NCBI GenBank assembly: GCA_013306675.1
Contig: JABLUY010000131.1
Location: 1-64,000, forward strand
Source: Thraustochytrium sp. TN22
Lineage: Eukaryota > Sar > Bigyra > Thraustochytrida > Thraustochytriidae
DNA length: 64,000 nucleotides
Reading direction: 5' to 3'
The translations under genes were made by a program, and so were the position numbers. The notes under the pieces are model-generated. The model ran no database searches. It saw nothing but the letters and a program-made list of their open reading frames with translations, and had not been told where the DNA came from. Numbering within the stretch: position 1 is the first letter of the stretch; every line of letters starts with the position of its first letter. This document shows positions 7,511 to 37,714 of this stretch, in pieces.

Positions 7511-7594
7511 ATGGCGCGCGTGGCGCGCGTGGCGCTCGTGGCGCTCGTGGCGCTCGTGGCGCTCGCGCTGACGACGCGGGCCGCGAGGGCGGCG
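7511..7594 (+). other. Signal peptide of the giant protein, built from a 9-nt tandem repeat
   Basis: Residues 1-28 start Met-Ala-Arg, then a hydrophobic core of Val-Ala-Leu triplets, ending AARAA before Gly29. The core is encoded by tandem 9-nt units (two of GTGGCGCGC type counting the ATG unit, four of GTGGCGCTC). It supports secretion of the N-terminus and the choice of this start codon. Confidence 0.75.
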
Positions 7595-10500
7595 GGGAGC
7601 CTGGACAATGGACTGCTTTGGAGCGTGGAGCCCGTGAGCAGCGCCTCGCTCCTGGTGGACCAGGTCCAGGATGGATGGCTGGATGTCCCGGACACCTCGG
7701 TGAACTTCACGCTCGACAAGGAGTACACCGTGCGGGTGTCGTACACCGCAACAGTCGTCGCGGACAAGCCGTACGAGCCAGGTGCGGACGCTCTCGGGTG
7801 GGCCGACCAGAACGATGTGCTGGGCATGCGCCTCGTCGTGGACGGCGTCCCATTCCGCCAGTCCGGTGCGCATACGACGCCCTTCACGTCGTTCGAGCAG
7901 GCGCGCGGTAGCCTGCTAGGCCACGCAGTCGCCACGCTCGCCGCCGGCAACCACTCCGCCACGCTGCAGTGGCGTCGCTGGGGCGACCGCGTGCGCAGCT
8001 GGAGCATACGCCCGACGCTGCTGCGCGGTCAGGGCGGTTCGCGTGCCGTCATGGTCAAGGCGCGCCATAAGTACTTTTACGCCGCGCAACCGCTCACCGG
8101 CGCCCGTATTTCCAGGGCCGCAGACGGCTGGGTGGAGGTGCCCGGGTGCTCCGTGGCCTTTTCGCTCCCGCGGAGCTGGACCCTGCACATGGTGTACGCG
8201 CTGCAGGCGCATCCGCAGCTCGCGCCCAACGCCGACGTGCTCGAAGAACCGGACATTCTTGGCACGCGCCTACTCGTGGACGGGGTGCCGTACCGCGAGT
8301 CGGGCGCCAGCTTCCGGACCGTCTCGCGCAGCTTCCGCCCGGCGGTCCTCGCCGGCAACCTCGTGCTCCCGCTCACGGCCGGCGAGCACACCGTGACGCT
8401 GCAGTGGCGCAAGTGGGGCTCGACTGTTCCGCTCTGGCTCTCTCAGCCGTCCATGTTTGGTGGCTTCATCTCGGGCCGTAGCCTCATCGTCGAGGGCGAG
8501 CACACCGCCATCGTGCTCAGCCGCTCGCTTGACAAGACCACTCTCGATAAGCGCAAGATAGCGCTGCAGCCAGCAGCCCCTGATGTCGATGGCTGGTTCG
8601 ACATCCCGGGCGCCTCCAACACAATCCAGCTCGTGGCCCCTTCCAGTACGGTGCACGTCAGCTTCTCGCTCACCACGAGCCAGCTCGGCCGCACCGACAT
8701 GGACTTTTGGACGTGGGAGCGCTGGAGTGCACTCTCCATGCGCCTCGTCGTCAACGGCCACGTCGTCTTCGGCAGCGGATCCTCCATGGACGCCCTCGTC
8801 CGCGTCACCGACACCATGCGCGGCGCCGTCATGCTCACGCTGCCAGCCGGGACGCACGTCGTCAAGATGCAGTGGCGCCAGGAGGGCGGGGACGATTCGC
8901 TTTCGTGGCAGACCGCGCAGGAGCTCTTGCAGGGCTTCGGCGGCGGACCGGCGCTCGTTTCCGTCTATCACGCCTTCAACCAGGCGCCAGAGGTTCACTA
9001 CGAGCCCCCCGACGATGAGACGCAGCTGCTCCTCGTGCAGCAGGGCGACAACATCACACTTGAGCTTACCGAGGACGGTGCGCGCCGCATCGCGGGCTTC
9101 CGCGTCTCGGACAAGGATGTCGAGCTAAGCCCGGACTCCGTTTTTGCCGTCACCATCACAGCCGAGAACGGCCTCATCTCGCTCGACGCGGCCGCTATCG
9201 TCAATGTGTCCTTTGCTACCGGCACGGGCGATCGCGACCAATTGGTCACCTTTACCGGCGGGCTCGACGCCGTTAATGGCGCGCTCCAGGCCTTCACCTA
9301 CATCGGCCACCTTAACTGGAACGGCTACGATACCATCACGGTCACCGTCGACGACCAAGGCAACGCGGGCCTCGGCATGGGTGGCTCGCGCACCGCGACG
9401 CGCCGCATCCAGGTTCACGTATCTCCCGTCAACGACGCCCCCTCTCTGGCGGTCCCCAGTGACCAAGTTACGGACGAGGACGAGGCCATCGTCATCTACG
9501 GCATTCACGTGCACGACGTGGACATTGATCAGTGGCGTGCGGACCACGGTGCTGACGGAACGGATGAGCCCCGCTTCCAGGTCTCCCTTGCGGTAGCGGC
9601 CGGCGCGGTGACCCTCGCCTCCACCGATGGGCTAACTTTCGCGCAGGGCACCGGCGCAGCCGACCGTGCCGTCACTGTCGTCGGCACGCTCTCGGATCTC
9701 AACGCCGCGCTCGCGCGGGTAACCTACCTCGGCGACGCCAACGTCAATCTGCGCACCGCCGCCGAGAACCTTGTAGTCCTGGTCAGCGACCTCGGCTTTG
9801 GCGCGGGCGAGCCCGTCGGGTCGACGCCGCAGCCGCTTACGGACTCAGTTACCATCCCCATCTCGGTACTTCCAGTCAATGACGCGCCCACCGTTGTGAT
9901 CCCATCGACCACCGCCATGCGCCTCCGCGGATACGCGGTCTCTGACATGGACCTGCTCGCCCGTCATCTCGACGACGACGCCCAGCAGTACACGGTCGAC
10001 ATCGTTGTCTCGAGCGGAATCGCCAGCCTCACGCTGGGCTCTGCGCTCGCGCTCAGTTTTGCTACGGGCTCCGGCACGAGCGACGATCGCATGACCTTCT
10101 CGGGGACCCTAGAGGACATCAACGCGGCGCTTTCCAGCATCGTGTACGAGCGGCCTTCCACCTTTCAGGGCGTTGACGATCTGCGCATCACCGTTGACAG
10201 CGAAGTCACTGGCGAGTCAGCGTCTACGCGCTATATTGAGGTCCTCATGGACCTCGATCCAGGTGTGACGCCCCACTTTGAAGGTGTTGCCCCGACACGC
10301 GCCTGCCTCGATGCCGCGCAAAACAACTCCGTTGTCATCACCGCGCCGCAGCTTCTGGCCATCTTGCAGGCCAACGAGGAGGACACCCTGCTGCCGGGCC
10401 CGACCGGCTGGTGGTGTCAATTCGGTGCCGCAACCGCCAGGTCACCGCTGCTCCTAGGCGAGGATGCTTTGCTGCGCTGCGAGGCGTCCGGAGACGGGCT

Positions 10501-13500
10501 CACCGGGCCCGAGGCCGTCATGCTGCGCCTCACGGACGGCCTCACGAGGTGGACCAACGCCCATGCCTTCTCCTTTTACGCAGCGCCACAGATCGAACGC
10601 TTCTGGCCTTCGGCGATTGGCCTCGAGGGCGGCGAGCTCCTTCACATTTTCGGAGCTGCCTTTGGCGACGTTGGCGCAAACGACTTGGAGTGCGTCTTGT
10701 CCTTCGACGGCCAGAGCATATACGCGCCGGCAATCTGGACGTCAAGCGCCGATCTTCTTTGCGAGGTACCGCGTGGAGGTTTTAGCGGACCTGGCGATGT
10801 GGAGCTCGCCCTCACGGTCGGTCGCCAGCAGACCTTCGTCTCAGCGGACACGCTGCAGGTCGTGGCGGAACCTGTTCTCACCGCCAGCGCGGCAGCGGGC
10901 CGCTGGGGCACGCGCGCCGGGGGCTACGAGCTCCCGCTCACCGGCGCCAACCTCATGACGCTGCAGGACGGCCCCGCAGTCTGCGTCTTTGGCACCATGC
11001 AAACCCCATTGGTCGTGCGCAGCGCCACGGAGGCGAGCTGTCTTGTCCCCGCGGCAGCGACGGCTGCCGCGCCCGTGTCGCTGAGCGTGCATTTGCCCGG
11101 CAAGGTGCTCTTCAGCGCGGACTTTGTCTACCTGCCGCTCCTCCACGTCGCGGACGTGGAGCCTGGCCACGCGTCCCTGTACACAACGACCGAGCTTACG
11201 CTACATGTCGCCCTCACGGGCGATGGAGGTGCGCCCGCGGAGCTCTCCATGGCCCAAACCGATGCGCTGCGCAACACCACCGTGTCGCCTGTGTGCGTGC
11301 TGCACTGGGCCGATCGCACCGAAAGCATTGCGGGAAGGCTCGGGCATGCTGTTTCGGCGGGCGACTCAAACTTCACCGTCGTATGCGAGGCGCCGCCTCA
11401 GGTTTACGCCGGGGAGGCGCGCCTGACGGTGGTGTTCAACGGCGTGGAGGAGATCGGCGGTAGCGAGAACGCCACCCTGGCACTCCACGCGGAACCCGAG
11501 CTCTTGTTCGCGTCGCCGGCCGTCGTTTTCGCGTCGGGCCCGGCCCGCGCAACGAGCGTCGTTCTTCACGGAAGCAGCTTTCCCGCGTCGCTCGGCGTCG
11601 AGCACGATCTCTCCAGAACTTTCTGCCTCTTCACGCGGACCTCGCCGCAGGCCCGCGCATGGACGGAGGCCACTTGGCTTACGGAGAACACGATTCGCTG
11701 CAGGTTGCCGACATGGACCACGGACAACATCACCGAGGTGGCCGTCGGCCTTTCCAGCTTCCCGGAGGCCGGCTCCGTCGCCATGACCTGGGTCCCGGAA
11801 CCTTCGCTGGCATCTTTGACGCAGCCGCAGCAGACGCGCCTAGGAGACTCCTCCGTCGTGCTGCGTGGCACTGGCCTGGCCCTGGCCCCCGGTCTTGCTT
11901 GCGGCTTCGGTGACGAACGCCTTTTCGCCACTGTGCTGGCAAGCTCGGTCACGGAGGATGACGACGAGGTAGCCTGTCGGCTCCCACTCAGCGCAGTGCC
12001 GAGCCCCGAGGGTACTTTGGCGGTCTCGCTCAGTGTGGACGGCCGAACCTGGCTGCCTACAAACCGTGTCGTCAATCTGAGTGCCTCGGACCTCGTCTTT
12101 TATGAGCTATCGCCGCGCCACGGAGCCGCCGGCGGGCTCGATGCAGTCAGCATCTACGTGGCTGGGCCCGAGCAGAACTGGACGGAAGCCCGCTGTCGCC
12201 TTGGACCCGCGAGCAGCCCCGAGCACCCCATGCCCGTAAGCTTTGACGAGGGCGGCATCCTCCGCTGCCCACTTCCGTCCGGCTTCGACTCGTCCGGAGC
12301 CTACCCAGTCTTCGTTTCGCTCAGCGAAACGGCGCCGTGGATCGACACCGGCTTGGTGCTCGCCCTGCACGAGCCTTTGATCACGACGCGCGTGTCCCCA
12401 CGGGTGTTGCGCGTCGGCGGCGGGGAAGTCGTCCGTGTTGGCGTTCTCAACGCGCTCGACGTGGCCGACCTGGTGTGCGTCTTTGAGGATCCCACCTCGG
12501 GTCTGCGCATCGAGGAAACTGCGCTCATGGTCGGTGCATCTACGGCCGAGTGCCTGACGCCGGCCTCCATTCTTCAGGCCAAGGCAGGCATGCGCGTGTC
12601 GCTCGCTTATGCGCAGGCCGATGAGCAAACCACCACGTGCATGGCTTTGGAAGACTGCCTCGTGGACTTGATGTACGAGCCAAGCATTGCCGCGGTGCTC
12701 CCTTCCGTCGTTGTTCTCGCTGCAGCTGATCACGAAGAGGCTCTTCTCGTACAGCTGGAGAGCCCGGTCCTGGCGCTGGGCGCCTCTGGGCACGCTTCCG
12801 GAGGCATCCAGTGTGAAGTGACCGGGGAGACGAGCGGTCTCTCTGCCGTGGGACAGGCGGCGCTGTCGCAGGATGATGACATGCAGCTCCGCTGCATCCT
12901 CTCTTTGAGCTTCCAGCGAGCCTGGGACGATGCAGGTTTGGCGGCCGAAGCCACGCGCGTGCGGCTCTCCATGGACGATGGGGCGACCTTCTCCGAGGCT
13001 TTTGCCGGGCCGGAATTCGTGCGCGCCGTGACTTTGGACGCTCTCGAACCCCAGGTATTCTACTCGCCGAGCGAGGCCAGCGCAGCGCTGCAGCTCACGG
13101 TCACAACCTCTGGTCTGGGCGACATGCCCGCCAGCGTCCGGGTCGCTCTCGTGTGCGTCTTCACGGACGCTAGTGCGGGCGCCATCTTCGCCGAGACGCC
13201 TGCGGTGGTCTTGCCCGGCTTCCAGCAGGCGCGCTGCTCGGCGCCGGCAGCAGCGCTTGGGCCGGGCGCTGCGGGACGCGTTGACCTGCGCTTCTACACG
13301 GAGCTTGGTGACTCCGTCTCCGTAGCGCGGGCCGACGGGCTCCCGGCTTACCGTACGGTCGACGAGCCCACCATCATCAAAGTGCACCCGCAAAGGGTGG
13401 GCCCTGAGGGCGGCGCGCTCGTGCGCATGCAGGTGACAAGCCTCGGTGCCCTCCGCTTTGCTTCGAGTTCGCCCAAGTGCCGCTTCGGCGATGTCGTGGT

Positions 13501-16500
13501 GGCTGGTCGACTCCTACACGACGATTGGCTCGAGTGCATGGCGCCGCCCGGGTCGCCCGGGTCGGAGGTTACGCTGGCCGTCTCTGTCAACGACGGCGCG
13601 CAGTTCTCCTGCAACGCCGGTCGCGACGACATGTGCAGCTTTGTGTATGCCAATGGGAGCGCGCAGCTCCTCTCCGCTGCCCCGGCTCTCGTCTGGCCTG
13701 GCATAGAAGTCGCAGTGGCTGGGCAAGGCCTCTCGCAGGATGGGCTGCGGGCGTGTCTACTGCGCGAGCCGGGCTCCACGTGGACTGCTTCGTATGTGCA
13801 CGCCAAGCTCCGCGTCGTAAGCGAGACAGAGGCCCGCTGCAAGATCCCTGCGGACTGGGCGGTGGACAGCCTGCTGCTCTCGGCCACGGAACGCCGCCTC
13901 GTGCTGGAGCTCGCGCTCTGGACCACGGCCGGCAGTGTGTTGGAGGCGACAGCGCCGCTCCAGCTGTACATGGACCTCGTGTCGGCGCCCGTTTTCTCCC
14001 TCGACGAGACCTCCGCCTTTGGCGCGGCAGGGACCACAACCATGGTGCACGTGCGAGCTGTGTCGGCGTGGCCGCTCGCTGACACTGACTCCATCCTGTG
14101 CCGGGTCGCTGGCCGGGAGAGCGCTGCAGTGATGTTGTCGGCCAACCTCGTGGCCTGCGAAGTGCCGCCGCTGGAAAACGCTGAGGTAGCCGCGGACTTC
14201 ACTGCCGTGGTCAGCATCGCTGCAAATGGCGCTGACTTTGTCAATGCAGCTGGCGTCTTTCAGTACACGCCTCTTCTCGTGCTGGAGGCTGCGGTGCCGC
14301 CTCGTGCAGTCTTTGGCATGACCTCGCAAATTGGGCTCGAGTCCGCCTCGCAACTCCAGCCGCTGTGGAAGGCGCTCGCGCAGGCCGGGTCGGACGCGGT
14401 TCGCTGCCGTTTCTGGAATGAAGATGCCTCTGCGAGCGCGAACACTCAGCTCACCCTTGCTGCAGGAATGCAGCCGCTGCGTTGCGCCTTCCCGGATGCC
14501 GAGGCCGCCTCCGCGCTCGGTGGGGATGCGTGGTGGAGCGTGGAGGTTGTCACCACCGCCTCGGATGCCTCACTCTCCACGAGACTTCCGATTGAAGTCG
14601 TGGCGCTCGCCCCTTCGCCAACCCGTGTGGAGCCCACCGTCCTTGTCGAGGGCGGCTCGCTCACCGTCTTCGGCGACAACATTACCTTCTCCCCTTTCAT
14701 GCAGTGTGGGTTTGGAGATCCTCTGCTGGCCGTGAGCGACGCGACCTTCGATGAAGATCTTGGCGCCCTGCACTGTGACGTTCCACACCGCGTCTACAAG
14801 CAGCTCACGCTGGACGCAGTTCAGGAGGTGGCTGTGCGCGTCTCGCTCAACTCGCACGAGTTCACACCGGCGCTTGGCGCGCCGGTGGTGCAACTCGTGC
14901 AGTCGGCTGGCGCTGGCCAGAGCCCGCGTGTGGCCACTCAAGTGCGCGTGCACGCTGTGCAACCAGCCATGGGCGACGTCCTGGGCGGCACGCAAATCGC
15001 TGTCCTTGGACAGGGCTTCACGTTGCTTCAGGGCGCGCAGCTGCGCGACGCCGACCCGCGCTGCGTCTTCACCAGCTCGCACCCGCACGCGGGCTTTTTG
15101 AGTGTGTCACGACCCGCCACCGTGGAAGACGACGCCACCCTAACGTGCTCCACACCCCGCCACAACGTGCCAGGCGCTGTTAGCGTTCGCGTAGCCTTTT
15201 ACGAGACGGATCGCGGGCAGTACGGCGCGGCGGACTTTGTCTACGCCCCGCGCCCGGAGGTGCTTCGCGTGCAGCCGTCCACGGTGCAGGCAGGCCGTGC
15301 CGAACCGGTGAACTTCCGCGTCTTTGCCCACGGCCTGGTCGCGTCGGTCGGGCTGCGTTGCCATATTGGCGACGTGACGTTGCCGGCCTCTTTGTCCGCG
15401 GACGGCCGCTCCGCGCTCTGCGATGCCTATGCGCTCGACTCGGCTACGGCAGGCGAGGCCATACAAGTGCGCGTGAGTAACAGTGCAGGGGAGCTCTCGG
15501 ACGCGCTGCCGGCGCCAGTCTACGTGCACGCTTTGCTCGCGCTCCACGAGCTCGAGCCGCGCGTGATCAGCGCTGACGAGGCCGCACGCCTTCGCCTGCG
15601 CGGCGAAAACTTCGTCCCGGCCGCCGACATGGCCTGCGTCTTCAATGGGACCACGCGCTACGCTCGCGCCGTCGTCGAGTCTGCGGACACTGTCGTCTGC
15701 TCGCTTCCCGCAAATTTGCTGCAACAAGGCGCGTACTCGGTGGCTCTGGTCGTCGACGGAGGCGCCTCGATCGTTGACTTTGAGGGCAGTGCCACTGGTG
15801 TCCTGCACGTCCGCGACCCGGGTCCTGGCTCCGTCGGCCGCTGCGAGCCGTCCTCGGGGCCCATGTCGGGGGGCACGTCCATCAGTGTGGCGCTAAATCA
15901 GGACCAATTGCCCCTGGCGGGAGATGTCCATTGCGCCTTTCTCTTCGCCGACGGAACTGGGCTTACCAGTGCCGCCGCACTCCGAGAGAGTGGCGCCAGC
16001 GCGCAGTGCGCGACCCCGGATGGGCGCAGCGCTGCCGGGGGCGAGGTGCGCGTCGAGGTTCGCACGGCCGGCACGCTCGATACGCTCGCCGCGGCAATCT
16101 TTACGTACCAGCCCGAGGTGAGCCTGGTGGCGGTGCAGGGTCCCAAGTTCCTCGCAGCCAACGGCGGCACTCCCCTCCGCGTTCTTGGCCTTGGTCTCCA
16201 CAGCCCTGGACATGCCTCGGTCCCACTGTGCCGGTTCTCCAGCACTGGCAGCGCAAGCTGGACCGCGGAAACCACGGGCGTGACCGATAGCGTGGAGACC
16301 TTCGGCCTGGACTCAGCCGCCGGCGCAAGCTATGCGGTGCTCTGCAGCACTCCGGCGCTGCCCGGCACACTAAGCCCTGCGGACGTGGGCGTTCCCGATG
16401 TCCGCGTGAGCCTGAATGGCGGCGTGGATTTCTCCGAGCCGGTCTCTTCGGGTTTCGCCTTCGTGTCCTCGCCGCGCGCCGACGCCGTTCAGCCAGAGAT

Positions 16501-31500: not shown

Positions 31501-34500
31501 GCCGCTCGCGCCACAGGAGGACACAGACTGCCTGGAGCACAACCTGACGCTGGCACGCGCGGAGCTCCTTGACCAGCTCGCAAGCACGCTGGCACCCACA
31601 TACATGCAGGTGTTGCTGGCGCCGCTGCGGCCGCTCCCGTGTGCACCGGGGACCTTTTGCCTGGGCGGCGTGGCGCACAACACGACCATCGACTGGGTCC
31701 CGGACGCGCCAGAGGGCGCGGAGGCGCCCCAAACGTGCACGGAGGGCGCCTACTGCGAGTGGGCGAGCTCGACGCCTGGTGGGACGGGGGCGTGCCATCG
31801 CGGGCACTACTGCCCGCCCGGGTCCGATTACCCCACGCACGCGCCGATTGGCACCATGTCGACCAACACCGGGTCCATCGCGCCGACGCTGTGCTTTCCC
31901 GGCACGTATACGCCGCAGAATTCAAGTACGGTCTGTCGCGTGTGTCCGGCGGGCTTCACGTGCCAGGGCTATGGCACATACGAGCCAACGATCTGCGATT
32001 CAGGCACATACCGGTCGCTGGCGGACGACGTAACCTGCAAGTTGTGCCCGATGGGTACGTGGAACCAGCACCGCGGCGCGACGGACATCTCGCTGTGCGA
32101 GCCGTGCCCGAGCTCCCGCGTGTGCGGCGTGGAGGCCATGTCGAACCTGACCGCGAGCACCGCATGCCCCTCCGGCCACGTGTGCCCGCAAGGCACGGAC
32201 TCTTCGACGCAGTTCAAGCACCAGGTCCCCGCCGGCTACTACACGGACGACGCGACGATGCCGGAGGACGTCTTCGCGAACATGTGCCCAGCTGGCAGCT
32301 TCTGCGAGCGTGGCACCAAGGGCTACTTGCGTGAGCGTAACAAGTGTATGGCCGGCTACTACTGCCCGCCTGGGTCTGCATCGGCCGCCGGCATGCGCAA
32401 CCGATGCCCACGGGGCACGACGTCCACGTCCGGATCCTCAGAGCTGGCAGCGTGCGAGATTGCCGGCGTTGATGTGTGCGACAAGGAGCTCGGGACGCGG
32501 TCGCACGGCACGTGGGGCTGGTACACGCAGGACAAGATCTACTTGCCGGCCTTCACTTACACGGGAAGCGACGGTTCGACCATTTCCTTCGACTCGACGG
32601 TCGGGTCGTCGCTCTCAGGCCAGGTGGAAGCCGAGGTGGAGGTCGTGCAGCGCATCCTGGTGGTCGACGAGAGCGAGTCGTCTCCGACGTGGCGCAACGA
32701 CAGCGTGCATGTGGAGCGCATCTGCCCGCCGCAGGCGCCGGCCATTGGCGGCACACTACTCACGGTGATTGGGCGCAACTTCTTCAACGTGCCGACGTCG
32801 GTGTGCCGCTTTACGGTGATCGATCACACGAGTGCAGATGCGAGCGCCGCCATGGCAAATGGTCTGCCGTCGCGCGACGCCCCGCTCATGGCGGGCACGC
32901 CGCTGTACGTGCCGGCGGTGTACGAAAGCCCGACGCGCATGCGATGTCGCCTGCCGGACCGAGCGACGCTTGCAGCCAACACCCCAGACATCTCAGCTGC
33001 CAGTGAGGTGAAATTTGTGAGCGTGGCGGCGTCGAACGATGGAGTCTTCTTTGGCGAGACGAGCGCCCCCATGGCGTTTTGGACGGGCACCACGGACCTT
33101 TCAGAAGCGCAAACAAGTGCAGTGGACGTGCTGCGCGTGGAAGCTGAGCACGCGGATTGCACGGGTGAGGCGGTGAACCTGCACCCGCTCAATCAGGGCT
33201 TCTCAACGGCGTGGCCGCAGACGGAGCGCGCGCTGGCATACGTTGGCAACGCCACGACGGTGGCGCTCCCGAGCTCCCGAGCGGAGTACGACGCGCTGAA
33301 GGCGGAGATGGGGTCCTCTTGGTGGACGGCGCGGTCCGACGAGCTGGCGACCTGGGACGAGCTGGCGGTTCGCATCGAGCGGCAAGAGCTGGAGGAGGGT
33401 ACTCGGGACAGCGAGCGCGGCTGGTTCATGCTGCAGACGCTGCACAAGGCGTCGATCCGCTTCGACCTCTCGCACCTGCCAGATGACCTCACCTATGGCG
33501 TGCACTACCGACTGGCCATCTTTGTCGCCAATTCGACGTGCGAGGAGCAGCGGTGCAGCGAGAGCCGCGTCCGGCGCACGGTTGTCTCGCAGGCGGATTG
33601 CGAGAATTCGGCTGGCTGCTCGATTGGCGACGAGCTCGAGGTGTACCCGTGCCACAGACCCATTGACCTGAGTCCGTGGTTCGAGAGCGGAGATGTGGCC
33701 AAGAACGCGATCTTTTCGCTCTCGCTCGTGGCGCTGGAGGATGTCATCTTCCGTGTCGAAGTGCATATCCTGCACGGCATGTACAGCGCTATGAGCCCGC
33801 TCTTCGAGGGCTCCGCGACGGTGGTGACCTCAGGGCCGGCGCGCGCCAACTCGACACGGCACATCGAGTCGGACACCATCGCACGGCGGCGCCTGAGCGC
33901 GGTGGTGAGTGCAGCGGAGAGCGAGGTGACGCAGGACTTTGTGTTTGCGAGCATCTTCCGTCGCGACACGCTCACCTCCGTGTCGCCTCCATTGAACCTG
34001 CCGCCGAGGTACGAGGACACGACGCGTGGACGCGTGCTGGTGTCCTTCAATGGATCCGAGGATGGCTCGGCACCGCACGTGCTGGACGACTACGAATCGG
34101 TTGCGACAGACCAGCAGTGGTGGAACCCGCCTGACTCTGTGCCGACAACGGTGCGCGACCTCATTGTCAAGTACCGCGAGATCTTCCATGAGATGGACCT
34201 GTCGGTGAGCGATGAAGATCTGAGTTTCTCGCTGGAGAAGATCGTGCTCCCGTACCTGCCATTCTTCTCCAGCTGCGAGGGCTTTGACTCCTACGTGACA
34301 ATGTGGGACCTCATGGAGTCCTCGGAGTGCGAGCTCCCGCTCTTTGACGACGACGGGGCGCGTCTACCGACCGAGTGGGAGCGGTACTCGTACGCGCCGC
34401 TGGTGGACTATGACGACGTGCGCGTAGTGGATCCGTACGATTTCTTGCAGGGCGACCCGATCGCGGACTACTGCACGCGCGAGGTGACGTGCCACTTCGA

Positions 34501-37500
34501 GGAGGATCTTACGTCCCGGGACCTGACGCCTCGCTGGTTCGAGGTGGCCTCCGGGACCACGTTGCTGGAAATTGCCTGGGAGCCCATGACGGTGGAGGAC
34601 TTTCTGCGGGGTGGTGCCTTCGTGGACGATTTTGTGACCGCCGGCTCGTCGGACTGGCTCATCCCGCTGGAGGTAAACCGCGACGCGGCAGACCTCATGT
34701 CAACCGAGTGCGGGCGGCAGTGCTTTCCGCGGTCTGTCACGCTCCAGGTGCACTACTACCAGGTGGATGTGAACTTGAAGCGTATTATCACACTCGCGCT
34801 GGTTCTAGACGACTACGACTACGACGAGAACCGCACCGATTACACCCTGAACTTGGAGCTCCGCGCACTGGGCTACTACGATCTGATTGTCAACTTTGCG
34901 TTTCAGCGCATTGTCTTCATCAATCTCTTCGTGGCGATCGGCGTCTTCACCGTGATGATCGCCGCGATGTTTTGGGCCATCAACCGAGTAACGACTCATC
35001 TGCAGCGGCCGCCCAAGTTCAGGTTCTTCTCGTATATGGCTCTGACAACGCCGGGCCCGGTGGTCGGGGTGAGTCTGGCGCTACTGCCCCTGAGCAGCAT
35101 TCTCGCCTTATGTTGGATCCTGATCGAGGGTCGCGAGGCGTTGCGCACGATCTCACTGCAACTGTGGCCCATGGAGATTGCCGGCGCGGACTCGATGACA
35201 GCTGTGCAGCTGGCAGAGGCAACGGCCGCCGCCGAAGAGGAGTACCTGGCGGAGCCCTACTTTCTGGAGTCCTGGCCGAAGCACTACATGGAGGATTCTG
35301 CCCTGCCGGACGAGGTGGCTGGGACTCGGTCCGGCCGCATGGGCCTAGCCTTTGTCCTCGTGGCTTTCTATGTCTTGCTCCTGAGCGTGCGAGCCTTCGT
35401 TCCGCGCAAGGTGTCCATCGAGGAGCAGGGCTACGAGGACCAGCATGACCACCACTCACGAGACCGCAGCACGTGGCGGCCGACGCTTTGGAAGCGGAGC
35501 ACCATGGTGGGCACGACATTGGTGCAAGCGGTGTTTTTGCTGTTCATGATCGAGTTCTCGTACTGGAACAACTTCGGCCAGTTCCTGTGGTCCTTCATCC
35601 TGCTCATGAAGCTGGTGGAGATCATGCACGATTTCGTGATGGAACACCTTCTCGTCGAGACGCTCCTCGTCTGCCCGCACAACGTGGCCTTTGGCATGGT
35701 GTTCAGCCTGGTGACCTTTGGTGCAAACAACTTCTTGGACATGGTCGTCGCCTACGTGATCTCGTATGGACTCATGATCATCACGCGCGTGTTCTGGGCG
35801 CCCGGAAAAGAGCGCATCTTCTCGATTCTGCGTCAGCGCGCCTTGGAGGTGAAGGACTTCGTGAAGCGCCATGTGACGCGGGGCCCCAGCGTGGACGAGC
35901 AGATCGCGCAGCTGGACTCGATCGCCGCCAAGAAGCAGCTGGTGGAAGACATGGAGAAGGCGCTGAACAAGGGCCTTGGACCGCGCCCGGACGCGAAGCG
36001 AGAGGTGGAAAAGCAGTTTGAGACAAGCGAGACGGTGGAGCCCATCTTGACGGCGTACATGGGTTTCTCAACCGAGGTGCTGGCGCTCTACTTCCAACCG
36101 TTCATCATTGTGCTGCTCATGGTCTTTCGCGATCAGATCGGCCTGCCGGATCTGTACGGCATCCGGAATCAGGATATGGAGTACTACCTTTGGTTCGCCA
36201 TCATTCTGATCGGCGCGCAGACGGTCTCGGACGTCTTCATCCTGCAGTCGCAGGAGCTCTTCCACGGGTGGAAGATCTACGACTACCTGACGTACACGCG
36301 ATACCGCTTCATCCAGCGCGAGCACCGCTGGAAGGGCTTCGAGGACAACCTGGACGAGTGCATCGACGAGACGATGCGGACGGTGGACCAGCTCTGCTTC
36401 AGCAGTCAGTACTACATGATCTGCACGGCGTACGCCTCGGGCATTATGATTTTGGTGCTCGGCATCGAGATGATGCTGCGCGCGGATTACAACGCATTTG
36501 GCGACCCGGCACTGCTCATGATCGTACCCTTTGTCATTTTCGACTGCAAGCTCGTGCGGCGCGGCGCCGTCAAGCTTGCGGACAAGGTTGGGCTCTGGCG
36601 GCTGCGCCACGAGGACACGGCGTGGCACACGGCGCTGGACGACGACGACGGCGGCGCGCCGCGGTGGGACGAGCTGGACAAGATCAAGGGTGCCTCGCAT
36701 GAGGCCTACCTCATGAACCAGAAGATCACGAGCGAGACCTTCCGGCACAAGTTCCTGGACTACAACCGGCCCTGGCTTGTGGCGCAGCTGCCCAACATCT
36801 TGACCCCGCGCACGTTGCGCCGTTCGCGGCCGTACCTGACGGCACAGCTGCAGAAGATTCTCGGCAGCGTCAATCCGGACGTGTCTTCGGACGACGAGGA
36901 CGACGACGGCCGCCCCAAGTTCGGTCCGGTTACGCTCACCAGCGCCTCGCGCAACATCATTCGCCTCTGGCTGGCGCGCGCGCGCCGCCTGCGCTCGCTG
37001 CGTGCCGCCGTGCAGCCGCTCCTCAATCGCGCGCGCAAGGTGGAGTGCGAGCAGTGCCTGAGCCGCAAGCAGCTGCAGGTGGAGCTGCTCACCCCTATTG
37101 ACGAGCTTGGTGACGCCTTTGAGGCTCAGTACCCAAGCGAGGAGTTCGACCAGGTCGCCTGGAAGAATTTCTTTCAGAAGCACGCCCGAATGCGCACCCT
37201 CTGCCTCGCATGCGTGCAGCGCCACCGCGAGGAGGTGGCCGGAGGCGGCGCGGGCTTTGCTCCTGGCGCTTGGGGCAGCGGTGGCGCCCGTGGCGGCGGC
37301 GGCGGCGGCGGCGGCGCCCGTGCGCGCGGCGTGTCTTCGGCGGGCGGGGCCGGAGAAGGGCCTGCTGCGGAGGCCGCCATCTTTGGGCCTGTCGTGCTCT
37401 CCGCGGCCTCGCGCGCAATCATGATGCATTGGCTACACAAGGCGCAGGAGTCGGCGCGCCGCCGTGGTGTCTCGCTCGGCATTCGCGACGCCGAGGTCAG

Positions 37501-37714
37501 CGACGACGACGAGGATGACGACCGCTTCGACAATGCGAGCGCGTTCGCGGGCCAGCGCCTCCAGCTCAGCGATGCCTCTGTGGCGATCATGCGCCGCTGG
37601 CTCGCGCAGGGCCGCCAGCAGCTCATCGCCCAGGGACGTGCAAACACAGCGCCGCGGGCCCGCAAAAAGAAGAGGAAGCAGAAGGCGCAAATGGCCAGCA
37701 TCTTTGGCCTCTGA
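7511..37714 (+). CDS. Giant IPT/TIG-repeat multi-pass membrane protein
   Basis: One uninterrupted frame encodes about 10,067 residues (roughly 1 MDa). The ATG at 7511 was chosen because it opens a signal peptide (residues 1-28, cleavage near AARAA/G); the frame is open further upstream but only through low complexity. Order: three related N-terminal modules (~34-485) sharing DGW.(D/E)(V/I)PG, MRLVVDG or LLVDGVP, and LQWR.WG; three cadherin/CSPG-like repeats (~487-918, VNDAP and INAAL motifs); one degenerate then about 65 IPT/TIG domains (~1020-7640); a cysteine-rich GCC2/GCC3 ephrin-receptor-like stalk (~7670-8325); one further IPT (~8402-8525); a ~600-residue ectodomain; 8-10 membrane segments (~9139-9677); and a ~390-residue cytoplasmic tail. 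It is likely a surface adhesion or sensing protein. IPT and GCC2/GCC3 domains occur in extracellular receptors generally; the function here is inference. I do not recognise a named orthologue. Confidence 0.85.
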   Translation: MARVARVALVALVALVALALTTRAARAAGSLDNGLLWSVEPVSSASLLVDQVQDGWLDVPDTSVNFTLDKEYTVRVSYTATVVADKPYEPGADALGWADQNDVLGMRLVVDGVPFRQSGAHTTPFTSFEQARGSLLGHAVATLAAGNHSATLQWRRWGDRVRSWSIRPTLLRGQGGSRAVMVKARHKYFYAAQPLTGARISRAADGWVEVPGCSVAFSLPRSWTLHMVYALQAHPQLAPNADVLEEPDILGTRLLVDGVPYRESGASFRTVSRSFRPAVLAGNLVLPLTAGEHTVTLQWRKWGSTVPLWLSQPSMFGGFISGRSLIVEGEHTAIVLSRSLDKTTLDKRKIALQPAAPDVDGWFDIPGASNTIQLVAPSSTVHVSFSLTTSQLGRTDMDFWTWERWSALSMRLVVNGHVVFGSGSSMDALVRVTDTMRGAVMLTLPAGTHVVKMQWRQEGGDDSLSWQTAQELLQGFGGGPALVSVYHAFNQAPEVHYEPPDDETQLLLVQQGDNITLELTEDGARRIAGFRVSDKDVELSPDSVFAVTITAENGLISLDAAAIVNVSFATGTGDRDQLVTFTGGLDAVNGALQAFTYIGHLNWNGYDTITVTVDDQGNAGLGMGGSRTATRRIQVHVSPVNDAPSLAVPSDQVTDEDEAIVIYGIHVHDVDIDQWRADHGADGTDEPRFQVSLAVAAGAVTLASTDGLTFAQGTGAADRAVTVVGTLSDLNAALARVTYLGDANVNLRTAAENLVVLVSDLGFGAGEPVGSTPQPLTDSVTIPISVLPVNDAPTVVIPSTTAMRLRGYAVSDMDLLARHLDDDAQQYTVDIVVSSGIASLTLGSALALSFATGSGTSDDRMTFSGTLEDINAALSSIVYERPSTFQGVDDLRITVDSEVTGESASTRYIEVLMDLDPGVTPHFEGVAPTRACLDAAQNNSVVITAPQLLAILQANEEDTLLPGPTGWWCQFGAATARSPLLLGEDALLRCEASGDGLTGPEAVMLRLTDGLTRWTNAHAFSFYAAPQIERFWPSAIGLEGGELLHIFGAAFGDVGANDLECVLSFDGQSIYAPAIWTSSADLLCEVPRGGFSGPGDVELALTVGRQQTFVSADTLQVVAEPVLTASAAAGRWGTRAGGYELPLTGANLMTLQDGPAVCVFGTMQTPLVVRSATEASCLVPAAATAAAPVSLSVHLPGKVLFSADFVYLPLLHVADVEPGHASLYTTTELTLHVALTGDGGAPAELSMAQTDALRNTTVSPVCVLHWADRTESIAGRLGHAVSAGDSNFTVVCEAPPQVYAGEARLTVVFNGVEEIGGSENATLALHAEPELLFASPAVVFASGPARATSVVLHGSSFPASLGVEHDLSRTFCLFTRTSPQARAWTEATWLTENTIRCRLPTWTTDNITEVAVGLSSFPEAGSVAMTWVPEPSLASLTQPQQTRLGDSSVVLRGTGLALAPGLACGFGDERLFATVLASSVTEDDDEVACRLPLSAVPSPEGTLAVSLSVDGRTWLPTNRVVNLSASDLVFYELSPRHGAAGGLDAVSIYVAGPEQNWTEARCRLGPASSPEHPMPVSFDEGGILRCPLPSGFDSSGAYPVFVSLSETAPWIDTGLVLALHEPLITTRVSPRVLRVGGGEVVRVGVLNALDVADLVCVFEDPTSGLRIEETALMVGASTAECLTPASILQAKAGMRVSLAYAQADEQTTTCMALEDCLVDLMYEPSIAAVLPSVVVLAAADHEEALLVQLESPVLALGASGHASGGIQCEVTGETSGLSAVGQAALSQDDDMQLRCILSLSFQRAWDDAGLAAEATRVRLSMDDGATFSEAFAGPEFVRAVTLDALEPQVFYSPSEASAALQLTVTTSGLGDMPASVRVALVCVFTDASAGAIFAETPAVVLPGFQQARCSAPAAALGPGAAGRVDLRFYTELGDSVSVARADGLPAYRTVDEPTIIKVHPQRVGPEGGALVRMQVTSLGALRFASSSPKCRFGDVVVAGRLLHDDWLECMAPPGSPGSEVTLAVSVNDGAQFSCNAGRDDMCSFVYANGSAQLLSAAPALVWPGIEVAVAGQGLSQDGLRACLLREPGSTWTASYVHAKLRVVSETEARCKIPADWAVDSLLLSATERRLVLELALWTTAGSVLEATAPLQLYMDLVSAPVFSLDETSAFGAAGTTTMVHVRAVSAWPLADTDSILCRVAGRESAAVMLSANLVACEVPPLENAEVAADFTAVVSIAANGADFVNAAGVFQYTPLLVLEAAVPPRAVFGMTSQIGLESASQLQPLWKALAQAGSDAVRCRFWNEDASASANTQLTLAAGMQPLRCAFPDAEAASALGGDAWWSVEVVTTASDASLSTRLPIEVVALAPSPTRVEPTVLVEGGSLTVFGDNITFSPFMQCGFGDPLLAVSDATFDEDLGALHCDVPHRVYKQLTLDAVQEVAVRVSLNSHEFTPALGAPVVQLVQSAGAGQSPRVATQVRVHAVQPAMGDVLGGTQIAVLGQGFTLLQGAQLRDADPRCVFTSSHPHAGFLSVSRPATVEDDATLTCSTPRHNVPGAVSVRVAFYETDRGQYGAADFVYAPRPEVLRVQPSTVQAGRAEPVNFRVFAHGLVASVGLRCHIGDVTLPASLSADGRSALCDAYALDSATAGEAIQVRVSNSAGELSDALPAPVYVHALLALHELEPRVISADEAARLRLRGENFVPAADMACVFNGTTRYARAVVESADTVVCSLPANLLQQGAYSVALVVDGGASIVDFEGSATGVLHVRDPGPGSVGRCEPSSGPMSGGTSISVALNQDQLPLAGDVHCAFLFADGTGLTSAAALRESGASAQCATPDGRSAAGGEVRVEVRTAGTLDTLAAAIFTYQPEVSLVAVQGPKFLAANGGTPLRVLGLGLHSPGHASVPLCRFSSTGSASWTAETTGVTDSVETFGLDSAAGASYAVLCSTPALPGTLSPADVGVPDVRVSLNGGVDFSEPVSSGFAFVSSPRADAVQPEIGVVDRQGAVLWPAVFVVLGDGFDEDNAKFCHLEGAQPAYVDAFVLNATAVLCEVPSEWGQLASVNQLASLRICANDLDPLAVADIIQLRRVQLPTIETITPQILLTEGGSPLRLSLAGEAAVDVTDWRCVFQCDAEVVGVANLTTDFTCVSPTLPEHQRGVNDALVCQMWLALAKETTLSGAERGDRQAVPLWFAERPILAASELRAPRYVHADQSAVLPVLLEVDAALDASSAPWALSCRWTVLQGEAATETAVVYTHGTSSGAPALLHCSLPRLEELLEQAAVPLWDYSTDRLSLSVATNGEDFAEASITVIPLPSPAALSFQELSAPTTKFLWGARGALAEVQLTLDAASVALGQRLAAADASVPIMCRFGAKWLAPAALNTASGVLSCPLPDALTGRVGVEVSSLYADDVFVDTGLFVDIPKDPFRIEVLEPSTGPLTGGTQMTVHLASAALLEVHGGGAGTLACVFASVDADEILVPAIANAVSATLQCETPAVEAPQDALVSVRVLSTGTDEALSMQEPSSGTAPFRYQMEPQVFKADPAVLQVEAADGSHVLTLVGADFIPEASFRCAWFSSAQTVRTAGNAIFGEAAVISSSNVQCTAPAELLEPSRSGGSASFDVHVSTNGIDISTASATVEVVPAMEIAGLSPAAGPQRGGTALQIAGRNFIKHRDLDYQCVFQAQDSLSHAATVPAAWASASALQCRSPPLPFAGSYVVRVQFVGQRGLAHLATTLSFASDLVFDALPPVVFEAASPAWAAPEQPFTLRLALESASAAALRDHIGSVVVRVGVHETTCSAADRELACSVPACGPGSLCGETGEKVFVGLSGDGLLEEAVLAGENGPLVVDRTAEVVLRRQVQPELVFAYEPALLDVHGANFAPASTLGCAICSEALDVCVPSQRLLRRSSAHVACEIPAMPEFLGASVTASARLYVSNDMGTRIKDGDLAAHLRAAVEAPFVPLLLLGHVTINAAEPELPRPGQELRLRVSSLPGDVTTVCSFGDDLQSPALRVEAHAVTCIVPSRVAATSTSVRLLFGVRGETRAESAVYTLSVDQERGKTVLEGGSLVSPASGSLQGGTRIRMEMPISTPQGVHFLCRFADNINGWTATAQAEVEIENSVFAACVTPRSTATQATHVIVTVVVQSSGEAVAQATFTYRPQPRGLATQESVLVALPEPKGEVRRVGLLGEGFSQGQLLCAYTTMDSCADVGSSAIFSSGETFGSEQAACDVPTELVERLGLDQNARLCVSVDAGQTFVGGDQALLRVVAPWEVATMETVTVFRGPAPTRPLRIAGRNFVAEVALFCVFDAYRKVYSEASFVSADAVLCEIPMDLLASQEKESGAAAGVSLLVGLSRYATIYEASSTRMELELASAPLMEVVRIADCGGPALICAVVRVQGAHLAQASLACRRGDTAAALNAEAGEAGRNEVICELPMEPVHTVSVSLNAGLQWFDVSVPAGAWIAMPPVEGVKPLWVPNDMDSFITISIAAGAEDDATQQYECAYSGRAARKIAAERISMTTLRCAVPAATTVHEAAFDEITVTLRQIETGRELLAGRLRVFSSPRIGLATPFEITGMEPTDVVVSGTGFQPLSTLSCRISGPQVAARTVVATFESATSVRCRVPEIPRGTTAGGDLVLAISLNGQDFVDVSQRLRVVDAPSVAHIRQDELLVSRKTGIVHVEIEVSLLGANAEPACRLLLHDTVMDLEALPDAMRGIVRCYGPWRGPALSEGGEARVSVDFADRFPARKLRRVADGIRVAVAPIVTDAAPLELTLQVGSSEAVRFGGLGFFANQSYSCIVDGREDGSQKQGLASFVSSTELTCSLDHIQTPGVYDVSLVGPSGVQVEALASDLGAKVQIRAVAPLRIFAATPASAAAAGGDMVQVHGASFDVTDRLQCVWTSARAEVLRTLATAANASTLSCATPRWTAQALGPGLGASVQLSLEGSAGVTTEDVLFEVIADAVVARIEPTSGPSSGATPVRLLGSFLAAGEAERGRAAEIYCKFGLRGVPVLATVLSAQEIICATPPVDPTLEGKTQLVAVSRDGGRRFAGAASFTYEQPLALDGLAPALGSVGGGTDVILTGQQFAHGDLLYCLFAFSNGDGYTVAGSYVSPSQVLCRTPRVAAPGQALVSVARNGVDYSEPLPWPFAFHAPPTILDHAPGFGSTLGGTLVTIRGTNFPRSPVTRCEFGFIATPATWRTKNLLECVAPRVATTGRVQLSVSMNGADVIKVGSFVYSPPVAVARFGPRSSPAQGGATIGFELAWTSIAEDDEEVKAAHAEQLQRLRCEFVGGSTSLAVPAQPSDSGAWACTVPSQAALGASATDDLVVRVVVRDDQILDAFPFAYHPHTFVASVWPRAGRRGTSELQLSGEGFVRPRADAIHGYVCVFAAAASGAEVSSPARWVSGSLLTCTAPEELEQGTHAVRVELQGSALAQRYAEDTLRFRVIDALQVDRVWPLSAPFRGGTAVVLMGHAFGDTALVDLQCRFGAAGIVKATVLNETAFRCIAPVKAQTATDVSIVQLSLSVGGQRFYEVANFTYQDPPQLVAMAPREGTAVGGTQVRIEVAVPLPMNASVLCRFGAGSVTGVVVEHEPTIVECETPAAADLATGDVDVVLSTNGGADVSFHALHFTYTAAPRLVGLTPASGPARGGTRLRIRGHGFRPQMQLRCDFNSGQAGAIASVRSASELECVVPPLRTTGAPVAVAVHVGGVRLQDMEGDTSLPFAVYHATGAGAPSPARGPLHGGTEVRLRLITDLAGAPEKVRCRFGSARSVPGRLLSSEPGAEAARDGYGTLQVACVSPTWSTSMGAVLQVPIALTLNGEDYEQAPEHIFEFAAQPAGVEMWPRRGPATGSTALHFRGLEAAATGASLVCRFEDTDATSAEARWREDASAFACLAPAGSEGAGVLVRLEEADSGIVLHHARFDYHAPLLLAPDAVEPVAVARFVDTPTRFRIRGEGFHALDTLVCIFFGQTAAGSRELARVAAHVEGDGELACEWPPPAAGDGLWDVLRGVEICLSNNGGADRSCLSVPVREPLEVIQVNPVRGPVSGGTRVEVAFLWADTEENLPALTCRFGHDIVDAAPVVQSIEAGLRRIACIAPAVAREGVVDFGIAWVGGPTYALATTEGSFRYVARFADDAEAWAIEAKPKAGSARGAEQVELLGVRNPQDVTDCAFVRALDPGAQPFVRGILSRREADGALFCTTPAVQVDSDTARLHAQVVISRNGGAQWSEASRGAAFSFLAVPSVRGLQPASAFPGDWIEVLGDDFAAGHDTAGQHVECSFEDPMEPLATASSRTTAAVLSRHRARCQLPTGLRADRAYLVRVSNTPGAEDVQAYANLRVLGPLQLHSLTPERVVATSAASASHVQLTVVPSEDLAGLEDYRFALLCEFTAEEPFWRAESPAALDLATDGHGVISCALPLGVPVATDAVEATRVSVALRSSTAASANVVSIPAAGLALDVYAPWRIETASPATGSLRGGTQVRLSLDRIVPSELRESLACRFSWVVDDSPAAHLGVPRQLLEVAPDYFEDDGEQGTLVICTTPDVGAKDAASGRFVTNRTLWLALSSDDDLVRWTMNEKRFDAVQRAVVRSISPMRGDVRGGTLISVRGHGFLASGAYSCVMGEAAPVPARRRSASLLECISPSLEAEGPRTTAVHVLHEGQTVSVSESTVLSDLAFAFEVLPRVHSVSPGRVLASGGALVTLRGTSFPWEEAAADLEVFCRFGGDIQVPATVISETEATCYAPAGLLAAGATEEEMVAVELSAANGFEYDTYADTVKLTIVPSARVVAVEPRFGSVHGGTLLRVSGRHFEAPTSCEFYMNGDSKVAVVTSAEVVHSNLLECATPARPSSQVSFALVTIAGLGLPASVRFSYARDPLVLEVAPEAAHVDGGVMIQLHGQHFRQEAGTLRCLFSDDDGALSSSQAVILSSELVECAVPAAGPRVSATQVRVTNNGQEESNALDLARWWRVDLQGGLLPAGGSVEGGLRTLLTLADAALPTLQGAALRVACRVGSIASRATLDVAAGAIWCDVPPSLGHVAGPVEVALSLDGGLHFSSTGLNFNYMSLPRVARVLPELGDLTGGTEVDVNMEAVDEALVRFRITGGGSTRASDCTVVTREGSSVHLQCLVGQDSEGAVPQLRIEGNHGEVMLAPLYRLRHAPRPTLLRLEPSTGYTQGDVEVSVVGRHFISTQALSCRFGSAADGAVTTAHFVHSKLVRCLAPRHAVGSVTVEVTNNGVDFSDSGLVFTYANAPQVYQVVPANGPVAGGTWVDVHGLDLVSHEGQQPLCKFGAVETPIVELVNSTLLRCLSPPYPTATAAAAAVSVEIGFAGEHGPGAFAHHEVRFTYTREPTVHAVYPSFGPRSGGTSVHVAVRHLLHADEVRCKIGDGPSTPGTVVLRREGRTDLGVDADLSIVSCETTGRAGAARVAVQVSQNGGSDFSTGSAVFFSYEDDDLVLVDVSPRSGPAQTGGTVISVHGVGFVESSTLRCRFDGAVERAARFLSTSKVLCSTPPARSGLALRQGVTVEVSNNGVDYVMAPERFVYYADPSVDSVVPPQALSQGGIPILVRGRHFRNETTLACWFARGTYVVPALYISPRVLSCTLPLLSERDPTLLDVRVTINGQDATSSVAHLAVLREALAGSFSSEARLVAAPNGTHVPRHGAANFTLCEPGSFQPRSGQRACVSCPVGYFCPDFGLAKPVACLPGFVCDEAGLRAPRDACPPGHFCEAGTKTAMLTAFQDSAKMDGPTPVRPYFVGLAEDLWSRSALRGVLSFMWSSSVLDWARTRRTAPATGFGSRGHPAAATQDFLDAAPGLLAPIAEVPLPCPAGTFCRSGVASGTLQEANFSTPQRCYDGFFCPPGSSTPEGAGACPTGHYCPTGDGALEAIPCPPGSHCPGVGNLVPVDCFPGTYNRFEGQSNCTACPMGHVCPGWGLEEPEICPAGFVCYTEALSTAIIQCPAGYYCEEGTLTLIRPDHVDAADVACMPYPATEDGLPLAPQEDTDCLEHNLTLARAELLDQLASTLAPTYMQVLLAPLRPLPCAPGTFCLGGVAHNTTIDWVPDAPEGAEAPQTCTEGAYCEWASSTPGGTGACHRGHYCPPGSDYPTHAPIGTMSTNTGSIAPTLCFPGTYTPQNSSTVCRVCPAGFTCQGYGTYEPTICDSGTYRSLADDVTCKLCPMGTWNQHRGATDISLCEPCPSSRVCGVEAMSNLTASTACPSGHVCPQGTDSSTQFKHQVPAGYYTDDATMPEDVFANMCPAGSFCERGTKGYLRERNKCMAGYYCPPGSASAAGMRNRCPRGTTSTSGSSELAACEIAGVDVCDKELGTRSHGTWGWYTQDKIYLPAFTYTGSDGSTISFDSTVGSSLSGQVEAEVEVVQRILVVDESESSPTWRNDSVHVERICPPQAPAIGGTLLTVIGRNFFNVPTSVCRFTVIDHTSADASAAMANGLPSRDAPLMAGTPLYVPAVYESPTRMRCRLPDRATLAANTPDISAASEVKFVSVAASNDGVFFGETSAPMAFWTGTTDLSEAQTSAVDVLRVEAEHADCTGEAVNLHPLNQGFSTAWPQTERALAYVGNATTVALPSSRAEYDALKAEMGSSWWTARSDELATWDELAVRIERQELEEGTRDSERGWFMLQTLHKASIRFDLSHLPDDLTYGVHYRLAIFVANSTCEEQRCSESRVRRTVVSQADCENSAGCSIGDELEVYPCHRPIDLSPWFESGDVAKNAIFSLSLVALEDVIFRVEVHILHGMYSAMSPLFEGSATVVTSGPARANSTRHIESDTIARRRLSAVVSAAESEVTQDFVFASIFRRDTLTSVSPPLNLPPRYEDTTRGRVLVSFNGSEDGSAPHVLDDYESVATDQQWWNPPDSVPTTVRDLIVKYREIFHEMDLSVSDEDLSFSLEKIVLPYLPFFSSCEGFDSYVTMWDLMESSECELPLFDDDGARLPTEWERYSYAPLVDYDDVRVVDPYDFLQGDPIADYCTREVTCHFEEDLTSRDLTPRWFEVASGTTLLEIAWEPMTVEDFLRGGAFVDDFVTAGSSDWLIPLEVNRDAADLMSTECGRQCFPRSVTLQVHYYQVDVNLKRIITLALVLDDYDYDENRTDYTLNLELRALGYYDLIVNFAFQRIVFINLFVAIGVFTVMIAAMFWAINRVTTHLQRPPKFRFFSYMALTTPGPVVGVSLALLPLSSILALCWILIEGREALRTISLQLWPMEIAGADSMTAVQLAEATAAAEEEYLAEPYFLESWPKHYMEDSALPDEVAGTRSGRMGLAFVLVAFYVLLLSVRAFVPRKVSIEEQGYEDQHDHHSRDRSTWRPTLWKRSTMVGTTLVQAVFLLFMIEFSYWNNFGQFLWSFILLMKLVEIMHDFVMEHLLVETLLVCPHNVAFGMVFSLVTFGANNFLDMVVAYVISYGLMIITRVFWAPGKERIFSILRQRALEVKDFVKRHVTRGPSVDEQIAQLDSIAAKKQLVEDMEKALNKGLGPRPDAKREVEKQFETSETVEPILTAYMGFSTEVLALYFQPFIIVLLMVFRDQIGLPDLYGIRNQDMEYYLWFAIILIGAQTVSDVFILQSQELFHGWKIYDYLTYTRYRFIQREHRWKGFEDNLDECIDETMRTVDQLCFSSQYYMICTAYASGIMILVLGIEMMLRADYNAFGDPALLMIVPFVIFDCKLVRRGAVKLADKVGLWRLRHEDTAWHTALDDDDGGAPRWDELDKIKGASHEAYLMNQKITSETFRHKFLDYNRPWLVAQLPNILTPRTLRRSRPYLTAQLQKILGSVNPDVSSDDEDDDGRPKFGPVTLTSASRNIIRLWLARARRLRSLRAAVQPLLNRARKVECEQCLSRKQLQVELLTPIDELGDAFEAQYPSEEFDQVAWKNFFQKHARMRTLCLACVQRHREEVAGGGAGFAPGAWGSGGARGGGGGGGGARARGVSSAGGAGEGPAAEAAIFGPVVLSAASRAIMMHWLHKAQESARRRGVSLGIRDAEVSDDDEDDDRFDNASAFAGQRLQLSDASVAIMRRWLAQGRQQLIAQGRANTAPRARKKKRKQKAQMASIFGL
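10271..30430 (+). repeat. Array of about 65 IPT/TIG domains within the giant gene
   Basis: This is a protein-level repeat of 80-105 residues. Each unit begins with a Pro-x-V/I strand, has a GP..GGT turn followed by V.G..F, a C.F(G) motif mid-domain, a second C..P motif, and often ends with VS.NG.DF. I counted 65 units by the paired C.F and C..P cysteines, plus a degenerate leading unit (around 10271-10560, with WWCQFGA and LRCEAS). The motif is most canonical from about unit 38 onward (nt ~22100-30400). Many earlier units have lost the GGT turn but keep both cysteines. I see no obvious long DNA-level identity between units, so the array looks old. Confidence 0.85.
30517..32480 (+). other. Cysteine-rich GCC2/GCC3-like stalk in the giant protein
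   Basis: Residues ~7670-8325 carry repeated C..G..C and CP.G..C spacing, e.g. CEPGSFQPRSGQRACVSC, CPVGYFCPDFGL, CPPGHFCEAGT, CPAGYYCEEGT, CFPGTYTPQNSSTVC. This is the pattern of GCC2/GCC3 (ephrin-receptor-like) modules, which form disulfide-bonded rods in extracellular proteins. It sits between the main IPT array and the last IPT domain and the membrane bundle. Confidence 0.8.
34880..36560 (+). other. Multi-pass membrane region of the giant protein
   Basis: Hydrophobic segments suggest 8-10 membrane spans, including FVAIGVFTVMIAAMFWAI (~9139), VVGVSLALLPLSSILALC (~9183), GLAFVLVAFYVLLLSV (~9277), TLVQAVFLLFMIEFSYW (~9334), VAYVISYGLMIITRVFW (~9415), FQPFIIVLLMVF (~9528), YLWFAIILIGAQTVSDVFI (~9559) and ASGIMILVLGIEMML (~9640). 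A charged loop with helical character (residues ~9440-9510) divides the bundle. I do not recognise the family. Exact span number and topology are uncertain. Confidence 0.7.
36920..37640 (+). repeat. Three copies of a short tail motif in the giant protein
   Basis: The cytoplasmic tail repeats a pattern of about 25 residues: FGPVTLTSASRNIIRLWLAR (residue 9804), FGPVVLSAASRAIMMHWLHK (9958) and RLQLSDASVAIMRRWLAQ (about 10016). Two copies follow or precede acidic SDDEDDD stretches. The motif is amphipathic and could be a helix that binds a partner; that is inference. Confidence 0.7.

What the first reader, a model, noticed from the sequence alone, without database searches (positions are those of the whole stretch)
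7511..37714. Single-exon gene for a ~10,067-residue surface protein
A 30.2 kb open frame without intron, joining signal peptide, cadherin-like repeats, about 65 IPT domains, a GCC2/GCC3-like stalk, a multi-pass membrane region and a cytoplasmic tail, is an extreme architecture. It could be a long-reach adhesin, mating or prey receptor, or a mechanosensor on the cell or flagellum. I know no characterised protein with this full order.
Basis: partly seen in the sequence, partly recalled or inferred. Interest (0 to 1): 0.8.

Follow-up and report, generated by a model that had tools for sequence, protein, structure and literature searches.

The report
Giant tethered membrane protein of protists
A marine protist encodes a single 10,067-residue surface protein, with a predicted ligand-binding head on a very long rod joined to a membrane module whose predicted shape resembles force- and calcium-gated channels; relatives occur in brown algae, diatoms and water moulds, and no study of them was found.

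Summary
One uninterrupted frame, 7511-37714 (+), encodes 10,067 residues: signal peptide, cadherin-like repeats, 63-65 IPT/TIG domains, a GCC2/GCC3 cysteine stalk, a multi-pass membrane region and a cytosolic tail. It is not a one-off. Two protein searches returned 85 relatives. Of 18 that carry a name, 16 are stramenopiles, one is a MAG labelled 'archaeon' and one (tag recalled) a jakobid. The nine long relatives checked keep the order. The genome also holds a 12,321-codon paralogue frame with laminin-G-like domains at its N-terminus instead.

I read it as a contact or force sensor: head binds, long rod pulls, membrane module responds. The parts are well supported, the sensing inferred. The host is most likely a thraustochytrid.

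The parts
7511..37714 (+). Single open frame, 10,067 residues plus stop
7511..7594 (+). Signal-peptide-like N-terminus (residues 1-28)
   Evidence: hydropathy 2.36, inspection; no signal-peptide predictor was available
7598..8980 (+). Head: three homologous repeats (residues 30-490) predicted to form a C1q/TNF-like trimer within one chain
8981..10246 (+). Cadherin-like region (residues 491-912)
   Evidence: Pfam Cadherin_4, E 2.6e-8, 2 stretches, best 633-707; the outer limits are my reading
10586..30388 (+). IPT/TIG array, residues 1026-7626
   Evidence: 63 domains at E<0.01 over the whole protein, including one after the stalk and a weak one at 965-1007; Pfam TIG
30461..32545 (+). GCC2/GCC3 (Ephrin_rec_like) cysteine-rich stalk, residues 7651-8345
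   Evidence: 51 Cys and 16 CxxGxxC motifs
32711..32998 (+). Lone IPT/TIG domain after the stalk, residues 8401-8496
   Evidence: E 4.9e-15; a TIG hit also lies after the stalk in 6 of 9 long relatives checked
33842..34867 (+). Membrane-proximal, strand-rich ectodomain (residues 8778-9119)
34907..36589 (+). Membrane module, 11 predicted helices (residues 9133-9693), no significant Pfam match
36590..37711 (+). Cytosolic tail, the best conserved part: NRPWL motif (9752-9756), three S-x-x-I-x-x-x-W repeats, CxxC at 9846 and 9898
   Evidence: 49-54% identity in the 13 best homologues listed; alignment A3

Best explanation
It is a conserved giant surface receptor of (mostly flagellated) protists. 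A C1q/TNF-like head at the tip binds a ligand on a surface, partner cell, prey or the cell's own coat. More than 60 Ig-like IPT domains form a rod of the order of a quarter of a micrometre (about 4 nm per Ig domain, recalled). The disulphide-rich GCC2/GCC3 stalk and a strand-rich domain carry contact or pull to an 11-helix membrane module, which responds as an ion channel or lipid scramblase or signals through the conserved cytosolic tail. Shown by sequence: order, conservation, repeats. Supported by models: head fold, 11 helices. Inferred: ligand binding, force transmission, permeation, place on the cell.
Confidence: 0.42

Rival explanations
1. A static adhesin or spacer: the rod carries the head away from the cell and the membrane part is only an anchor.
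For: IPT and cadherin-like repeats and C1q/TNF-like or laminin-G-like N-terminal domains are common in adhesion proteins (recalled).
Against: An 11-helix module with conserved charged residues inside helices and a tail about 50% identical in the best homologues are more than an anchor needs.
Confidence: 0.25
2. A contact receptor that triggers regulated secretion, as CRMPs do in Tetrahymena and Toxoplasma (for example at zoospore settlement), without being a channel.
For: CRMPs also join a cysteine-rich (ephrin-receptor-like) ectodomain to a C-terminal multi-pass domain and are proposed contact sensors for exocytosis (PMC9670195 and PMC9815656, abstracts and passages). Thraustochytrid zoospores settle and attach (PMC12221091, listing and passages).
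Against: CRMPs have 9 (or 5 in Tetrahymena) predicted helices in those passages, here 10-11; no IPT array is described for CRMPs in the passages read; no CRMP sequence was at hand to compare.
Confidence: 0.2
3. A flagellum-specific anchor or sensor for hairs or the flagellar membrane.
For: The genome has the ciliary gene meckelin. The 17 hits named for an identifiable organism come, by recall, from organisms with a flagellated stage. The stalk weakly resembles a late part of the Chlamydomonas mastigoneme protein Mst1 (E 3.9e-4; 5.1e-5; 1.5e-5).
Against: Only 18 of 85 hits carry a name, so presence or absence with flagella was not tested; the jakobid relative lacks tubular hairs (recalled); the stalk resemblance is to a common Cys-rich repeat.
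Confidence: 0.13

Closest known systems
Unnamed 'IPT/TIG domain-containing protein' / hypothetical protein family of stramenopiles (e.g. Albugo laibachii AlNc14C165G7869 = P0058, Chaetoceros tenuissimus CTEN210_17444 = P0063)
   Same: Same order of TIG array, Cys-rich stalk, membrane segments; 36-37% identity over the 901-residue query.
   Different: Shorter (7,926 and 6,328 aa versus 10,067); head not found in these two; no function assigned.
TMEM16 / OSCA-TMEM63 / TMC superfamily (TCS superfamily in PMC11534332, passages)
   Different: No significant Pfam match and no sequence signal in a low-power test; no member with such an ectodomain is known to me (recalled).
Hair-cell tip link (CDH23/PCDH15) with TMC1
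   Same: Works-like analogy: a long extracellular tether pulling on a TMC-type module (recalled).
   Different: There several proteins, here one chain; tether of IPT rather than cadherin domains; force gating not shown here.
CRMP (cysteine repeat modular proteins) of apicomplexans and ciliates
   Same: Cys-rich ectodomain plus C-terminal multi-pass domain; surface contact role proposed.
   Different: 9 or 5 helices, no IPT array or C1q-like head in the passages read; homology untested.
Fibrocystin/PKHD1-type IPT proteins
   Same: Several IPT/TIG domains on a ciliary-type surface protein (recalled).
   Different: Single membrane pass (recalled), versus 10-11 here.
C1q/TNF-like proteins (C1q head, Cbln1, BclA, BC2L-C lectin)
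   Different: Three repeats in one natural chain; four of the five best matches are single-chain constructs by their titles.

Membership tests
Stramenopile giant TIG-GCC-multipass family (unnamed) | Homologous membrane module and tail | tested here: met
   tree places it in a 72-row clade with the named oomycete and ochrophyte sequences (SH-aLRT 99, quick method, midpoint root)
Stramenopile giant TIG-GCC-multipass family (unnamed) | TIG array then Cys-rich stalk then membrane helices | tested here: met
TMEM16/OSCA/TMC superfamily | 10-helix core fold | tested here: inconclusive
TMEM16/OSCA/TMC superfamily | Match to a curated sequence model (Anoctamin PF04547, RSN1_7TM PF02714) | tested here: not met
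   membrane region alone against Pfam: only two chance-level hits, E 4.3 and 5.8, neither of these. Not filed as a member.
TMEM16/OSCA/TMC superfamily | Distant sequence similarity by profile comparison | tested here: inconclusive
   hhalign probability 0.0-0.3, but the positive control OSCA-TMEM16 also failed (7.2 over 5 columns)
TMEM16/OSCA/TMC superfamily | Ion or lipid permeation | not testable with these tools
   needs expression
C1q/TNF-like superfamily | Jelly-roll fold packing as a trimer | tested here: met
C1q/TNF-like superfamily | Match to a curated C1q/TNF-type sequence model | tested here: inconclusive
   BclA_C E 2.3e-4, 21.5 bits, under its cut-off of 38; no hit to the C1q or TNF models
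CRMP | Cysteine-rich ephrin-receptor-like ectodomain | tested here: met
   PF07699
CRMP | Nine C-terminal membrane helices (Toxoplasma, Plasmodium) | tested here: not met
   10 by hydropathy, 11 in the model
CRMP | Sequence homology to CRMP core | not tested
   no CRMP sequence at hand
Fibrocystin/PKHD1 | Single membrane pass | tested here: not met
Meckelin | Meckelin sequence family PF09773 | tested here: not met
   no Pfam match; hhalign probability 0.2 to the genome's own meckelin

The most novel reading that the evidence does not exclude
A one-chain mechanotransducer: a natural single-chain C1q/TNF-like head and a tether of over 60 Ig-like domains built into the same polypeptide as a divergent TMEM16/OSCA/TMC-type channel or scramblase, conserved from thraustochytrids to brown algae, diatoms, water moulds and (more distantly) jakobids; a paralogue keeps the tether and membrane module and exchanges the N-terminal domains.
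Probability: 0.25. Interest if true: 0.9.

Novelty: new variant of a known kind. Interest (0 to 1): 0.7.

Why it matters
If the membrane module is a channel or scramblase, this family would be a striking case of a mechanical tether and its channel in a single protein, which would let force gating be tested without reassembling a complex. Even if it is only an adhesion receptor, it is a widespread, apparently unstudied, very large surface protein in organisms that include important algae and water moulds, with a membrane module and tail that match no Pfam family.

Full report
OBSERVATION. The frame at 7511-37714 (+) is real and coding throughout: 10,067 residues from an ATG followed by a signal-peptide-like segment, no stop, a coding-type codon-position pattern in every one of 11 blocks, and a chance of no stop of about 10^-103. 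The open frame reaches back to 6686, but that part is R/A/P-rich and has a different codon-position composition. An antisense frame for RMC1 (3286-8007, -) overlaps the start; its N-terminal Pfam domain begins at residue 429 of that frame, about position 6723, so the true RMC1 start is probably somewhat above 6.7 kb and the two genes divergent (my calculation).

ANATOMY. Pfam finds Cadherin_4, many TIG domains and Ephrin_rec_like (GCC2/GCC3) repeats (the last 70 residues were left out of that scan). My own profile, iterated on this protein, finds 63 IPT/TIG domains at E<0.01 (65 at E<0.1) and none in 5 shuffles. The cysteine stalk (7651-8345) has 51 Cys. One TIG domain sits after the stalk (8401-8496). 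Hydropathy gives 10 segments in the membrane region, and 7 isolated marginal windows in the ectodomain.

THE TAIL. The cytosolic tail is the best conserved of the six segments compared (49-54% identity in the 13 best homologues listed), with an NRPWL motif, three S-x-x-I-x-x-x-W repeats and two CxxC pairs, and matches no Pfam family. It probably binds a conserved inside partner (inference).

RELATIVES. Two searches of 5.8 billion proteins, limited by length to about 1,400-4,500 and 5,500-17,400 residues, gave 47 and 38 hits; the first scored only the 7,971 candidates sharing most words. Eighteen of 85 hits carry an organism or locus-tag name: 11 oomycetes (Nothophytophthora, Pythium, Phytophthora x3, Aphanomyces x4, Thraustotheca, Albugo), 5 ochrophytes (Phaeothamnion, Ectocarpus, Leptocylindrus danicus, Chaetoceros, Cyclotella), one MAG labelled 'archaeon' that groups with the ochrophytes in the tree, and P0085, whose ANDGO tag I recall as the jakobid Andalucia godoyi (lineage). 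P0085 keeps the order signal-like start, TIG, Cys-rich stalk, membrane segments, NRPWL tail. In the tree of 87 rows all named oomycetes fall in one group of 19 rows, all named ochrophytes in one group of 34, this protein in the 72-row clade containing both (SH-aLRT 99), and the C90 paralogue in another clade with P0043, P0044 and P0046 (quick method, root for drawing only, several long branches including P0085).

OWN GENOME. 37.9 Mb, 453 contigs. The membrane end has one relative found, on contig C90 (such counts are lower bounds): a 12,321-codon frame with two laminin-G-like matches at its N-terminus, 65 TIG domains by the profile, a Cys-rich stalk, nine hydropathy segments and a similar tail. 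So tether and membrane part stay while the N-terminal domains differ. The host shows no light-harvesting proteins, has meckelin, and has ten acyl-carrier domains spaced 327 bases apart in one 3,044-codon frame, which I recall as a mark of the thraustochytrid PUFA synthase; together with the tree this makes a thraustochytrid most likely (inference).

MECHANISM. Best reading: tip binding, a rod of more than 60 Ig-like domains (roughly 250 nm if straight, using a recalled 4 nm per domain), a disulphide-rich stalk, and a membrane module that responds to pull or binding. The closest functional analogue recalled is the hair-cell tip link with TMC1; the closest studied multi-pass contact receptors I found are the CRMPs (PMC9670195, PMC9815656; abstracts and passages). 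A plain adhesin, a secretion-trigger receptor and a flagellum-specific anchor are the rivals.

LIMITS. No transcript, expression, localisation or functional data; the channel-like fold is suggestive; the flagellum link was not tested; literature absence rests on six searches of an open-access library.

Noticed in passing
G000 contig C90:24201-61166 (-), loci L014-L018: Paralogue frame of 12,321 codons with two laminin-G-like matches at the N-terminus, 65 TIG domains, Cys-rich stalk, nine membrane-type segments and a longer tail; larger than the gene in question.
   Followed up: partly
G000 contigs C11, C99, C399 (two copies): Other frames of about 4,350-4,700 codons with TIG domains (Pfam cadherin plus TIG in C11; the others not scanned by Pfam) and about 10 C-terminal membrane segments; the four share a similar tail; possibly CRMP-like.
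   Followed up: partly
G000 contig C277:154214-168136 (-): 4,640-codon frame with five cadherin stretches, several TIG domains and several membrane segments.
   Followed up: partly
G000 contig C124:29160-32300 (-): Ten acyl-carrier domains spaced exactly 327 bases apart, nine with identical scores, suggesting homogenised tandem repeats in a PUFA synthase-like gene.
   Followed up: no
window 3286-8007 (-) versus 7511: RMC1 frame overlaps the start of the giant gene on the other strand; the GC-rich stretch near 6.7-7.5 kb may be a shared promoter region.
   Followed up: partly
P0070: A 7,319-residue homologue filed in public data as 'archaeon' groups with ochrophyte sequences in the tree: probably a mislabelled eukaryotic contig.
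   Followed up: partly
residues 9813, 9967, 10023 (window 36947-37600): Three copies of a short S-x-x-I-x-x-x-W motif in the cytosolic tail; the W positions are nearly invariant in homologues; function unknown.
   Followed up: partly
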